From: Taibaiella helva
GTDB taxonomy: Bacteria; Bacteroidota; Bacteroidia; Chitinophagales; Chitinophagaceae
Direction of reading: 5' to 3'
Assembly (NCBI RefSeq): GCF_003545695.1
Contig: NZ_QUZZ01000003.1
Coordinates: 248,001 to 312,000 of the forward strand
DNA: 64,000 bases
Shown: positions 5 to 31,233 of the stretch, one piece after another
How the letters are laid out: the number at the start of each line of letters is the position of its first letter
How positions within the stretch are numbered: position 1 is the stretch's first letter
Made by a program: the position numbers and the translations under genes
The notes under the pieces: generated by a model
The model's database searches: none
Told to the model about the DNA's origin: nothing
Seen by the model: the letters and a program-made list of their open reading frames with translations, nothing else

Positions 5-103
5 TACAATTGCGCTAAAGGGTATGTAATTGATCTAGGCTATGATTACTACTTTCAACCTTGTGCTGATTACATTGACGTTAAATCACGATCAACTAAA
101 TAA
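5..103 (+). pseudogene. Possible remnant of an upstream gene, coupled to the lipoprotein gene
   Basis: Frame 2 is open from base 5 to the TAA at 101-103 and encodes about 32 protein-like residues (YNCAKGYVIDLGYDYYF and on). Its stop overlaps the ATG of the next gene in a TAATG arrangement, which usually marks a real upstream gene with translational coupling. However, an in-frame TAG lies at 2-4 and no ATG is available after it, so the reading frame cannot continue leftward as it stands. It may be the tail of a broken gene, a gene with a frameshift, or chance. Product unknown. Confidence 0.25.
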
Positions 104-672
104 TGAAGATTCAACAAATTGCAGGAATATTATTAGTCTTGGCTTTTATAGGTTCTTCTTGCTCACGGCTACATCTTTTTGTAAGTGAAGATAGCTTTGT
201 TCATAAATATAAAGGGTATTTATTGTTAGAAAGAAGGACAATGGATACAAGTTATTCCGACGACATTTATTTAAATAGATTGGCCAATTTAGAAAATAAA
301 TTTTCGCTGCTTTTCTTTGAAACGAGCGTAGATACAAGCGAAAAAAATAGAGAAGTATTGCTCGACTTTTTCAGGAAACAAAGTAGTGCCATTGAACTGG
401 GAACCTACTGTAGCGCAGCATATGAGAAGCTTATCGATGACTACAGCGATACTTTTAGTGTTACTAATAGAGAAACTGTATACATACTGCCTGCTGAGGT
501 TAGATTGATACAAGAGAGTAGGGGTGCGTATGAAAACGAAATTGTGACGATTAAAATAGATGGTGATAGTAAAAAAATAAAAGTAAGGTCGGGTAGAACG
601 ACTTTAGTTTCTATTAATCCTATAATAGGAAGGCATATTATTGACAGACATATGAGGAAGAAAAACTATTAG
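103..672 (+). CDS. Putative lipoprotein of unknown function
   Basis: Encodes 189 residues. The N-terminus is a lipoprotein signal: a short basic start, a hydrophobic stretch (about residues 6-17) and a lipobox ending G-S-S-C with Cys20 as the lipidation site. The rest is a soluble, mixed-charge domain with no motif I recognise. The start ATG at 103 overlaps a TAA in the preceding frame. Base composition is much more AT-rich than in the rest of the window, and codon choice (many AAA, TTA, ATA) differs from the neighbouring housekeeping genes. That suggests recent acquisition, and the gene sits on the 3' side of a tRNA-Asn gene, a common island position. An immunity or accessory lipoprotein is possible but unsupported. 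Confidence 0.6.
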   Translation: MKIQQIAGILLVLAFIGSSCSRLHLFVSEDSFVHKYKGYLLLERRTMDTSYSDDIYLNRLANLENKFSLLFFETSVDTSEKNREVLLDFFRKQSSAIELGTYCSAAYEKLIDDYSDTFSVTNRETVYILPAEVRLIQESRGAYENEIVTIKIDGDSKKIKVRSGRTTLVSINPIIGRHIIDRHMRKKNY

Positions 673-28344: not shown

Positions 28345-31233
28345 ATGACTGCTTCTGAGATCCGTCAGCAATTTTTGAATTTCTTCCGTTCCAAGGGACA
28401 TACTATAGTAGCTTCAGCTCCTATAGTGGTCAAGAACGATCCTACCCTCCTGTTTACCAACGCAGGGATGAACCAGTTCAAGGATTATTTCCTGGGCAAT
28501 AAAACACCGGAAGCTACAAGGGTCGCGGATACGCAAAAATGTCTCCGGGTCAGCGGTAAGCACAATGACCTGGAAGAGGTAGGCGTGGATACTTATCACC
28601 ATACCATGTTTGAAATGCTGGGCAACTGGAGCTTCGGCGATTATTTCAAAAAAGAAGCCATCGCCTGGAGCTGGGAGCTGCTTACCGAAGTGTATGGTAT
28701 GGATAAGAGCCGTCTCTATGTGACCGTATTCGAAGGCGATGCGAAAGAAAACCTTCCCTTCGACCAGGAAGCCTACGACGAATGGAAAAAATGGATACCC
28801 GAAGAACGCATCCTGAAAGGCAATAAGAAAGATAATTTCTGGGAAATGGGCGATACCGGCCCCTGTGGTCCCTGCAGCGAGATCCACGTGGATTGCCGCA
28901 GCGAGGAGGAAAGAGCAGCGGTGAACGGCGCCAGCCTGGTAAATGCCGACCATCCGCAGGTGATCGAGATATGGAACAATGTATTCATGCAGTTTAACCG
29001 CCTGAAGGACGGCAGCCTGCAGCCTTTACCGGCTACGCATGTGGACACCGGTATGGGCTTCGAGCGCCTCGTAAGGGTACTGCAAGGCAAGACTTCAAAC
29101 TACGACACCGATGTTTTTGCCGGTACCATCAGGCTTACCGAGCAGATCACCGGCAGGCAGTATGGCTACAACGACAGCCGCGAAGATGTGGCTTTCCGCG
29201 TGCTGGCCGATCATATCAGGGCGATTGCCTTCACGATCGCCGATGGCCAGCTGCCTTCCAATACCGGCGCCGGTTATGTGATCCGCCGTATCCTGCGTCG
29301 TGCGGTACGGTATTATTATTCTTACCTGGATTATAAATCGCCACTGCTGCATCAATTGCTGCCGCTGATCGCGGAACAATTCGAACAAGTCTTCCCCGAG
29401 CTGCATATGCAGAGAGACTTTGTAACCCGAGTGATCAGGGAAGAGGAGGAGTCGTTTCTAAAAACGCTTCAAAAAGGGCTTGATAAGGTGAAGGAATATC
29501 ATGAGAGCTGGACAAAATTCAGAAAGTATTTCGAAAAATCTTTGAAAGGCAATTTGACAAATGAGGAGTTTGAAGACTTTGTTAGGCTCAGGGATTTTAT
29601 TAATGAACATCCTACATTTAAGATAGAAGGGCTGGAGCGTATTGGTGAATATTATGAAAATGCGATCAAAGGTAATGTAGATGCCTTCAACCGTCAAGTT
29701 GCCAGCCAAAGAATGTCTTCTGACGACTTTGTGCAAAATTTTGAAGAAGCGATCAATAAGGTAGCCGTTTTTGACGGAAAATTTGCTTTTGAATTAAATG
29801 ATACATTTGGGTTTCCTATAGACCTCACTAGTTTAATTGCTCAGGAGCTTGGCTGGTCGGTAGATATGAAAGGCTTTGAAGCTGAGATGAAGCAACAGAA
29901 GGAAAGGAGCCGAGCAGCAACGGCTATCGATGCCGGCGATTGGGTGGTTGTACACGATACACCCAAATCGGTATTTGTCGGCTACGATGACCTGGTCGTT
30001 GAAACCCGCCTGGCCCGTTACCGTAAGGTAAAGGCAAAAGGTAGAGAGCAATACCAGCTGGTGCTGGAAACTACGCCCTTCTATGCCGAAAGCGGTGGCC
30101 AAGTAGGGGATACCGGTGTGCTGCTGTTTGGAGAAGAAGAGATAGCCGTTACGGACACCAAGAAAGAAAACAACCTGATCATTCATTTTACGGAGGGACT
30201 TCCTACGCAGCCGGAACAAGCCGTATGGGCCAAGGTGAATTGGGAAAACCGTATCCTGACCAGCTATAACCATACTGCGACGCACCTGATGCATGCTGCT
30301 CTGCGTGAAGTGCTGGGCACACATGTGGCACAGAAAGGATCGCTGGTGTCGAGCCAGGTGCTGCGTTTTGACTTCTCGCATTTTGCAAAAATGACCGATG
30401 AGGAGATCCGCAGGGTAGAGGAGATCGTCAATGCGAAGATCAGGGCCAATATACCGGTGATTATTAAGGAAATGCCGAAAGAAGAGGCTATTGCTATGGG
30501 CGCTATGGCCTTGTTCGGCGAGAAATATGGCGATGTGGTCCGCGCAGTGATCATCGATCCGGAATACAGCATCGAGCTGTGCGGCGGCACCCACGTGGGG
30601 CATACCGGCATGATCGGTGTGTTTACCATTACAGCTGAAAGCGCCGTAGCAGCGGGCGTTCGCCGTATCGAAGCGCTGACCGGCCCTGCAGCGATACAGT
30701 ATTTTGCCGATAAGGTAGCACAGAGCAAACAGATCACCGAATTGCTGAAAGCGAAAGATCCGCTGAAGGCGATAGAGAAGCTGATCGAAGATAAAGCTGC
30801 CCTGGAAAAGCGTATCGAAAGCCTGGAAGCACGTCAGCTGGTGGGTATCCGCAACGAGCTGATGCAGAAAGACGAGCTGATCACCATCCGTACGGAGGCC
30901 GGCCAGGAATTTGCCATCAACTTCATCGGTGATATTGTGGAAGTGAGCAGCCCTGATGCCTTGAAGAAGCTTTGCTTTGATTTTAAGAATCACCTTCGTG
31001 ATCATGTGGTCGTGCTTTGTGCCAACATCGGCGGCAAGCCCCAGGTAGCGGTCGGCATTAGCGAAACAGTAACCAATGCTACCACACTGGATGCTGGTAA
31101 GATCATTAAGAATACCATTGCCCCGCTGATCAAAGGCGGTGGTGGCGGACAGAAGACGCTGGCAACTGCCGGCGGACAGGATGCCGGCCAGCTGAAAGAA
31201 GCGATCGCGCAGGTGAAAGCTTTACTAAAATAA
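28345..31233 (+). CDS. alaS: Alanyl-tRNA synthetase with a large internal insertion
   Basis: 962 residues from ATG 28345 (MTASEIRQQFLNFFRSKGH); the family is usually ~870-880. Class II catalytic core ~1-240 (NDPTLLFTNAGMNQFK, DTGPCGPCSEIH), tRNA-recognition helices ~240-460, editing domain with NHTATHLMH and CGGTHVGHTG zinc-binding/hydrolytic motifs (~650-755), and C-Ala domain with a GGGGGQKTLATAGG end. Between KTLQKGLDKV (from Lys373) and FDGKFAFELNDTFGFP (Phe480 onward) there are ~80-90 extra residues compared with E. coli AlaS. The DNA there is AT-rich (about 36% GC by hand count over 29461-29820, against about 55% in the line before it). The frame is intact and the catalytic and editing motifs are present, so the enzyme should be functional. 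Confidence 0.95.
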   Translation: MTASEIRQQFLNFFRSKGHTIVASAPIVVKNDPTLLFTNAGMNQFKDYFLGNKTPEATRVADTQKCLRVSGKHNDLEEVGVDTYHHTMFEMLGNWSFGDYFKKEAIAWSWELLTEVYGMDKSRLYVTVFEGDAKENLPFDQEAYDEWKKWIPEERILKGNKKDNFWEMGDTGPCGPCSEIHVDCRSEEERAAVNGASLVNADHPQVIEIWNNVFMQFNRLKDGSLQPLPATHVDTGMGFERLVRVLQGKTSNYDTDVFAGTIRLTEQITGRQYGYNDSREDVAFRVLADHIRAIAFTIADGQLPSNTGAGYVIRRILRRAVRYYYSYLDYKSPLLHQLLPLIAEQFEQVFPELHMQRDFVTRVIREEEESFLKTLQKGLDKVKEYHESWTKFRKYFEKSLKGNLTNEEFEDFVRLRDFINEHPTFKIEGLERIGEYYENAIKGNVDAFNRQVASQRMSSDDFVQNFEEAINKVAVFDGKFAFELNDTFGFPIDLTSLIAQELGWSVDMKGFEAEMKQQKERSRAATAIDAGDWVVVHDTPKSVFVGYDDLVVETRLARYRKVKAKGREQYQLVLETTPFYAESGGQVGDTGVLLFGEEEIAVTDTKKENNLIIHFTEGLPTQPEQAVWAKVNWENRILTSYNHTATHLMHAALREVLGTHVAQKGSLVSSQVLRFDFSHFAKMTDEEIRRVEEIVNAKIRANIPVIIKEMPKEEAIAMGAMALFGEKYGDVVRAVIIDPEYSIELCGGTHVGHTGMIGVFTITAESAVAAGVRRIEALTGPAAIQYFADKVAQSKQITELLKAKDPLKAIEKLIEDKAALEKRIESLEARQLVGIRNELMQKDELITIRTEAGQEFAINFIGDIVEVSSPDALKKLCFDFKNHLRDHVVVLCANIGGKPQVAVGISETVTNATTLDAGKIIKNTIAPLIKGGGGGQKTLATAGGQDAGQLKEAIAQVKALLK
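29491..29760 (+). other. AT-rich in-frame insertion inside alaS
   Basis: Encodes roughly residues 383-472 of AlaS: a charged, helix-favouring segment (ESWTKFRKYFEKSLKG, NEEFEDFVRLRDFINEH, EGLERIGEYYENAIKG, DDFVQNFEEAI). The AT-rich composition continues ~60-90 bases past it into conserved codons, so the foreign-looking tract is wider than the extra residues. No inverted repeats, intein motifs or target duplications were seen at its edges. Confidence 0.75.

What the first reader, a model, noticed from the sequence alone, without database searches (positions are those of the whole stretch)
29461..29880. AT-rich in-frame insertion of ~80-90 residues inside alanyl-tRNA synthetase
AlaS is one of the most length-conserved proteins, yet here 110 residues separate KTL (residue 373) from the conserved FELNDTFGFP block, against about 29 in the E. 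coli protein as I recall it. The extra segment is charged and helical, and its DNA is ~36% GC by hand count (29461-29820) against about 55% in the line just before. The AT-rich style continues into the conserved codons after it, so a recombination tract from a divergent alaS, carrying a lineage-specific insert, fits better than slow growth of a loop. It lies in the tRNA-recognition helices before the editing domain and could alter tRNA contacts, editing, or add a new binding partner. No intein or mobile-element signature was seen.
Basis: partly seen in the sequence, partly recalled or inferred. Interest (0 to 1): 0.8.

Follow-up and report, generated by a model that had tools for sequence, protein, structure and literature searches.

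The report
Hypervariable insert in alanyl-tRNA synthetase
An essential enzyme that loads alanine onto tRNA carries about 80 extra amino acids at one spot beside its tRNA-reading strip, and relatives carry different extra pieces at the same spot, one of them resembling a piece of the CRISPR enzyme Cas9.

Summary
The insert is real. The single alaS of this genome (28345-31233, 962 aa) has 118 residues from the ESFLKTL glutamate to the DTFGFP aspartate; its closest relative, Taibaiella koreensis (93% over 778 core columns), has 36, two other genus members 64 and 67. It is not private: this spacer is a length hot spot. 44 of 196 distinct AlaS genes have 45 or more residues there (up to 132), and 67 of 251 have an insertion of 8 or more, against at most 8 of 251 at any distant site. 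The inserts share little but their edges; one relative's insert matches the start of Cas9. tRNA-Ala(GGC) keeps G3:U70 and is identical in relatives with spacers of 36 and 67, so a new tRNA rule is unlikely. Most likely it is a tolerated helical appendage at a permissive joint before the G3:U70-reading peptide, gained by tract replacement or fragment capture plus internal duplication. Function is inferred, not shown.

The parts
28345..31233 (+). alaS, alanine--tRNA ligase, 962 aa, only copy found in the genome
   Evidence: ORF; TIGR00344; single match in own genome
29500..29775 (+). insert, residues ~386-477, about 80 net extra residues against Aquifex AlaRS and T. koreensis; helical in the model
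   Evidence: AlphaFold2 helices 357-400, 406-420, 430-440, 445-454, 460-471, 10-residue mean pLDDT 66-89 over residues 381-480
29509..29868 (+). tract of AT-shifted synonymous codons, residues ~389-508 (edges rough), covers the insert and the first ~20-30 conserved codons after it
   Evidence: (12-codon bins; bins 413-424, 449-460, 473-484 and 485-496 are individually below P 0.05, uncorrected); identity drop to T. koreensis
29524..29556 (+). copy 1 of a degenerate internal repeat (KYFEKSLKGNL, residues 394-404)
   Evidence: self-alignment score 39, above all 300 shuffles; 21 of 33 bases shared
29647..29679 (+). copy 2 of the internal repeat (EYYENAIKGNV, residues 435-445)
29735..29756 (+). 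third, shorter DNA copy, 82% over 22 nt to 29648-29669
   Evidence: the repeat finder; short two-copy matches can be chance
29797..29811 (+). peptide NDTFG, residues 485-489, aligned by sequence with the Archaeoglobus 449-453 peptide that reads tRNA G3:U70
   Evidence: phmmer range 480-945 <-> 444-885 of 3wqy, (offset carried over six residues, alignment itself not printed); role of the peptide from PMC6451123 passages

Best explanation
The joint between the last helix of the tRNA-recognition part of AlaRS and the strip that reads G3:U70 is a permissive, exchangeable spacer in Bacteroidota. Extra in-frame coding DNA lodges there (fragments of other genes, in one case cas9; internal duplications), the spacer turns over together with ~20-40 codons after it faster than the rest of the gene, and pieces that stay are kept compatible with folding. 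In this genome an AT-rich tract of about 120 codons (residues ~389-508) carries an ~80-residue helical insert with a degenerate internal repeat. It most likely works as a surface appendage on an otherwise normal AlaRS that still charges G3:U70 tRNA-Ala. Shown: the hot spot, its largely unrelated contents, the mosaic composition, the unchanged tRNA-Ala(GGC). Inferred: import by recombination, surface position, absence of a catalytic role.
For: Hot spot: insertions >= 8 aa relative to T. koreensis at residues 381-400 in 67 of 251 AlaS and at 361-380 in 3, no other 20-residue bin above 8; spacer >= 45 in 44 of 196 distinct genes, in 22 of the 117 rows from the unnamed family genomes. Lability: 30 changes for 42 long rows among 192; 500 label shuffles gave mean 38, min 31, so inheritance is weak though not nil; 10 of 19 genera in a hand-made list hold both lengths, plus the window's genus. 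Foreign content: one of 44 inserts matches Cas9, TIGR01865 E 3.5e-13, PADLOC Cas9 7.2e-11; these listings do not name the member, but the L104 insert alone matches PDB Cas9 chains, best E 1.9e-6. Its genome G148 has a separate cas9 start, 55% identical over 31 residues. Tract: 3 of 20 G/C-ending codons just after the insert against 12.6 expected; long-spacer genes more AT-shifted than short ones in the loop (p 3.9e-6) and the next 20 codons (p 9.7e-5). The window's 60 residues after the spacer are 77% identical to L124 and L104 (core 72%) but 73% to its genus member L084 (core 86%). Constraint: L022/L180 spacers dN 0.10, dS 0.70; L028/L029 dN 0.10, dS 2.1. Unchanged tRNA-Ala(GGC).
Against: No donor of the window tract and no relative of the insert was found. 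No recent transfer between distant genera was seen at DNA level. Third positions of shared codons already differ by ~40% between window and T. koreensis, so the identity drop alone cannot separate import from fast evolution. Long/long pairs are also diverged in the flank (50.6%). The 20 codons upstream of the spacer also show a weak AT shift in long genes (p 0.0049), and in the showcase pair the short gene L134 is as AT-shifted after the spacer as the long L139 (-0.17, -0.13). Only one of 44 inserts is a firm captured gene piece, and G148 is a fragmented genome (390 contigs, 81% complete, 4% contamination). Constraint rests on short stretches: of six pairs two gave no loop dS, the others dN/dS about 0.15, 0.05, 0.15 and 0.74, and loop dN exceeds core dN in all six.
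Confidence: 0.5

Rival explanations
1. The spacer is under diversifying selection: something outside (an inhibitor, toxin or phage protein) docks on AlaRS at this face, and changing or enlarging the spacer gives escape. The insert is then a shield.
For: High turnover of the spacer and of residues ~498-517, which are variable even between close short-spacer relatives (66.8% at 84% core identity in 88 pairs; 45.7% in 29 long/short pairs); large insertions concentrate at one site; some spacers are conserved between relatives.
Against: No attacker is known or was found; tolerance alone predicts the same scatter on the tree. No dN/dS above 1 was shown.
Confidence: 0.15
2. Growth of a loop by internal duplication and fast drift, with coupled compensating changes in the residues that follow; no import.
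For: Degenerate internal repeat in the insert; residues near the joint covary with spacer length, e.g. residue 480 is F in 23 of 42 long rows against mainly A, D, E, S in 150 short; flank divergence also between long/long pairs; no donor.
Against: Synonymous composition also changes across 20 conserved codons in the window and in long genes as a group, which protein-level coupling does not explain; a Cas9 fragment cannot arise by duplication.
Confidence: 0.25
3. The insert is a copy of a mobile in-frame repeat like the Rickettsia palindromic elements.
For: Short, in-frame, in an essential gene, like RPEs (PMC10969869 passages); inserts of L034 and L062 look, by eye, like translated repeat DNA.
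Against: Only one match in the genome at protein level, E <= 1e-3; only a 13-nt overlapping palindrome in 29300-30050; inserts of relatives are not one family (mean column identity 11%).
Confidence: 0.05
4. Intein, intron or bypassed segment removed before the enzyme works.
For: None beyond the in-frame position.
Against: No intron family in Rfam at E <= 1 over 29200-30100 (one sub-threshold unrelated hit); no intein family in Pfam or NCBIfam scans of the protein or insert; spacer length in relatives takes many values from 31 to 132.
Confidence: 0.02

Closest known systems
Bacterial alanyl-tRNA synthetase (AlaS, TIGR00344; structures 1riq, 3hxu, 3wqy)
   Same: Outside residues ~386-477 the protein matches AlaRS: catalytic, tRNA-recognition, editing (tRNA_SAD) and DHHA1 parts
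   Different: About 80 extra residues before the G3:U70-reading peptide; that peptide reads NDTFG, not the Y-(D/E)-(S/T)-(H/Y)-G form described as always present in PMC6451123
Rickettsia palindromic elements (in-frame selfish inserts in genes; PMC10969869, passages seen)
   Same: Short in-frame coding inserts tolerated inside genes
   Different: RPEs are repeated families; the window's insert is single-copy and the relatives' inserts are largely unrelated and concentrate at one site of one gene
Cas9 RuvC-I N-terminal segment (TIGR01865)
   Same: The insert of relative L104 is homologous to it
   Different: Of 50 of 394 family genomes with a hit, only G148 has it in a frame of AlaS size, 880-1000 aa; the window's own insert has no such match

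Membership tests
Alanyl-tRNA synthetase (AlaS) | Matches the AlaS equivalog model above its cut-off | tested here: met
   TIGR00344 868 bits against cut-off 457
Alanyl-tRNA synthetase (AlaS) | Catalytic, editing and C-terminal parts present | tested here: met
   PF01411, PF07973, PF02272
Alanyl-tRNA synthetase (AlaS) | Y-(D/E)-(S/T)-(H/Y)-G peptide reading G3:U70 | tested here: inconclusive
   Window has NDTFG; Asp and Gly are kept; the strict form is present in only 72 of 192 relatives, so it does not define the group here
Alanyl-tRNA synthetase (AlaS) | Cognate tRNA-Ala with G3:U70 | tested here: met
   tRNA-Ala(GGC) of G000, 5' end ggggga, 3' end tcctcca; the UGC isoacceptor was not found by the pattern used
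Alanyl-tRNA synthetase (AlaS) | Aminoacylation and editing activity | not testable with these tools
   No assay
Rickettsia-type palindromic element | Multiple related copies in the genome | tested here: not met
   One match at E <= 1e-3 in own genome, at protein level
Rickettsia-type palindromic element | Palindromic structure | tested here: not met
   Only a 13-nt overlapping palindrome
Intein | Intein family match | tested here: not met
   No such family

The most novel reading that the evidence does not exclude
The spacer before the G3:U70-reading strip is a dedicated diversity site of Bacteroidota AlaRS: AT-rich spacer cassettes, some built from pieces of other genes including cas9, are swapped between lineages under selection, perhaps to escape agents that attack AlaRS or to gain a binding partner, and some have become folded new subdomains such as the helical one here.
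Probability: 0.2. Interest if true: 0.8.

Novelty: new variant of a known kind. Interest (0 to 1): 0.55.

Why it matters
AlaRS is usually treated as a highly constrained protein, and the G3:U70 rule as its fixed core. A site beside that strip which accepts unrelated coding fragments, including a piece of Cas9, and turns over with its flank faster than the rest of the gene gives a natural series of insertions to test how much an essential enzyme tolerates, where new domains come from, and whether something in the environment selects on this face of AlaRS.

Tried and rejected
Relatives of the window insert: none in own genome beyond itself at E <= 1e-3; in 394 family genomes 123 others have weak matches at E <= 1, best 0.0053 with stop codons; three partial hits (E 0.0020-0.0044) among 395 phylum genomes; one phage hit at E 0.9; none in plasmids or IMG/VR; none in PDB at E <= 5. 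Pfam, NCBIfam, PHROGs and PADLOC gave nothing convincing for it (best PHROG 14124, E 0.0072 over 22 residues, unknown function). Homology of the window insert to the spacers of genus members G001/G003: not significant by shuffles. Other long inserts as captured domains: besides the Cas9 one no family reached significance that I would trust; L038, L267 and L024 were also tried singly; a nuclease-like look of L038 and L267 is by eye. Phage- or plasmid-borne alaS as carrier: IMG/VR none; of 71 plasmid records the best are three Bacteroidales at 54-55% (12 listed); of 36 phage records the best is a short faecal one at 53% (8 listed). Recent cassette transfer between distant genera: not found. Isolated fold of insert plus flanks: mean pLDDT 59.6 and no PDB match at E <= 0.001. 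Literature, listings only: searches showed no title on this spacer, the only search with Cas9, listed 10 of 1,045 papers, none holding alanyl-tRNA synthetase, so it says little.

On re-checking I lowered the main confidence from 0.55 to 0.5 and raised the no-import rival from 0.2 to 0.25, because long/long pairs are also diverged in the flank and the AT shift reaches weakly upstream.

Full report
Observation. The window holds one alaS gene at 28345-31233, 962 codons; one match was found in the genome of 34 contigs. The protein matches the AlaS model far above its cut-off and has catalytic, editing and DHHA1 parts. Between residues 385 and 475 it has 89 residues where Aquifex AlaRS has 10. The insert is about 80 residues, 29500-29775. 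GC of 29461-29820 is 35.8%; GC3 of residues 386-491 is 0.34, four standard deviations below the mean of coding windows in the 64 kb.

Relatives. Spacers, counted from the E of ESFL to the D of DTxGFP, are 118 in the window, 36 in T. koreensis (L003) and G002, 64 in G003 and 67 in G001. I used 80 named loci and 120 loci from the 185 of 195 unnamed family genomes that had a match. These are not a random draw: one search used peptide patterns of the window protein, and I chose by hand from the best-scoring rows. A few records lie outside the phylum or bear odd labels (L077 Phycisphaerae, L046 labelled Euryarchaeota). Duplicates and four loci without the motifs (L050, L053, L069, L079) were dropped; of 196 distinct genes 44 have a spacer of 45 or more, the rest 31-43. 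In the tree set of 192 the split is 22 long of 117 unnamed family rows, 17 of 72 named rows and 3 of 3 others. Sixty loci from other families of the phylum were picked by hand from the 150 or so listed rows of 381 matching genomes, some because their frame was long; 59 could be read (not L269) and 9 have 45 or more, among them 4 of 9 in family f3 and 0 of 11 in f24. Across 251 sequences, insertions of 8 or more residues relative to T. koreensis fall at residues 381-400 in 67 and at 361-380 in 3; no other 20-residue bin has more than 8.

What the inserts are. They share little but their edges (mean column identity 11%), though small families of related spacers exist (for example L022 and L180). 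Scans of the 44 against four libraries gave one firm hit, Cas9. The listings do not name the member; the L104 insert (genome G148) on its own matches PDB Cas9 chains over residues 5-49, best E 1.9e-6. G148 carries a separate cas9 start, 55% identical over 31 residues. Of 50 of 394 family genomes with a hit to this segment, only G148 has it in a frame of 880-1000 residues; the other frames are of Cas9 size or short and were not inspected one by one. G148 is a fragmented assembly, so the case needs checking. The window's own insert matches nothing convincing. It contains a degenerate internal repeat (residues 394-404 and 435-445, above all 300 shuffles; further 22-nt copy).

How it moves. On a tree of the rest of the protein (192 rows, 42 long, FastTree) the long/short state changes at least 30 times; 500 label shuffles give a mean of 38 and a minimum of 31, so the state is weakly inherited and very labile. 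Trees of 60-column windows need 27-38 changes along the gene, except the three windows spanning the spacer's edges, with 24, 19 and 18. Nucleotide identity in the 40-codon window at the spacer correlates least with core identity (r 0.46 against 0.53-0.83 elsewhere). So spacer class goes with its immediate flank more than with the gene. Among close relatives (core >= 80%, pairs not independent) residues 20-40 after the spacer are 45.7% identical in 29 long/short pairs, 50.6% in 16 long/long pairs and 66.8% in 88 short/short pairs at equal core identity; L134/L139 are 96% identical in the core and 40% there. Low identity thus goes with being long, which tract replacement or fast coupled evolution could give. 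Synonymous codons separate the two in part: after correction for amino acids and for each gene's own bias, the 20 codons after the spacer are AT-shifted in 35 of 42 long and 103 of 150 short genes (means -0.125 and -0.039, p 9.7e-5), the window being the most extreme of 192; in the window 3 of 20 codons end in G or C where 12.6 are expected, and the shift fades by about residue 508. Import of an AT-rich tract fits this best. Against it, no donor and no recent DNA-level transfer was found, the 20 codons upstream are weakly shifted too in long genes (p 0.0049), and the short gene L134 is as shifted as its long relative L139.

How it works. The insert ends about eight residues before peptide NDTFG (485-489). 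By the offset of residue 480 to 444 of the Archaeoglobus enzyme this is the 449-453 peptide whose Asp450 touches G3:U70 (PMC6451123, passages). The AlphaFold2 model (62 sequences, mean pLDDT 88.7) prolongs the preceding helix to residue 400 and adds four helices (406-471), with 10-residue mean pLDDT 66-89 over residues 381-480. I could not place them relative to tRNA. The tRNA-Ala(GGC) gene is identical in the window's genome, G001 and G002 with spacers 118, 67 and 36, and keeps G3:U70; the pattern found none in G003. So the identity rule has not followed the insert. Spacers shared by relatives show constraint in part: of six pairs, dN/dS is about 0.15, 0.05, 0.15 and 0.74 in four and undefined in two, and loop dN exceeds core dN in all six. 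My reading is a tolerated, folded appendage at a permissive joint (0.5); diversifying selection by an unknown attacker or partner is the more exciting rival (0.15).

Novelty. The library searches (listings only) showed no title on this hot spot; the one search with Cas9 was swamped by genome-editing papers and tests little. In-frame inserts in genes are known, for example Rickettsia palindromic elements (PMC10969869, passages), so I rate it a new variant of a known kind.

Noticed in passing
L104 (G148:C61:14322-17422): AlaS of an unnamed relative with a Cas9 RuvC-I N-terminal segment as spacer insert, while the same genome has a separate cas9 start on contig C177
   Followed up: partly
window 103-669: The only other ORF among the 12 lowest GC3 windows (about 0.30-0.36); nature not examined
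   Followed up: no
192 AlaS; window 29797-29811: The G3:U70-reading peptide, described in PMC6451123 as always Y-(D/E)-(S/T)-(H/Y)-G, has that form in only 72 of 192 relatives; Phe, Asn, Leu and others replace the Tyr, and Phe the His/Tyr
   Followed up: partly
L038 and L267, spacer inserts: Long inserts (spacers of 132 and 126 residues) that by eye recall PD-(D/E)XK nuclease segments; no significant family match; L267 has a 38% match over 45 residues in viral contig L306
   Followed up: partly
L034 and L062, spacer inserts: Inserts that by eye look like translated short-repeat DNA (YRISN, ERYAVSG, ESRRQKAE), possible repeat-element origin
   Followed up: no
residues ~498-517 of AlaS: The block after the G3:U70 strip is variable even between close short-spacer relatives (66.8% at 84% core identity)
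   Followed up: partly
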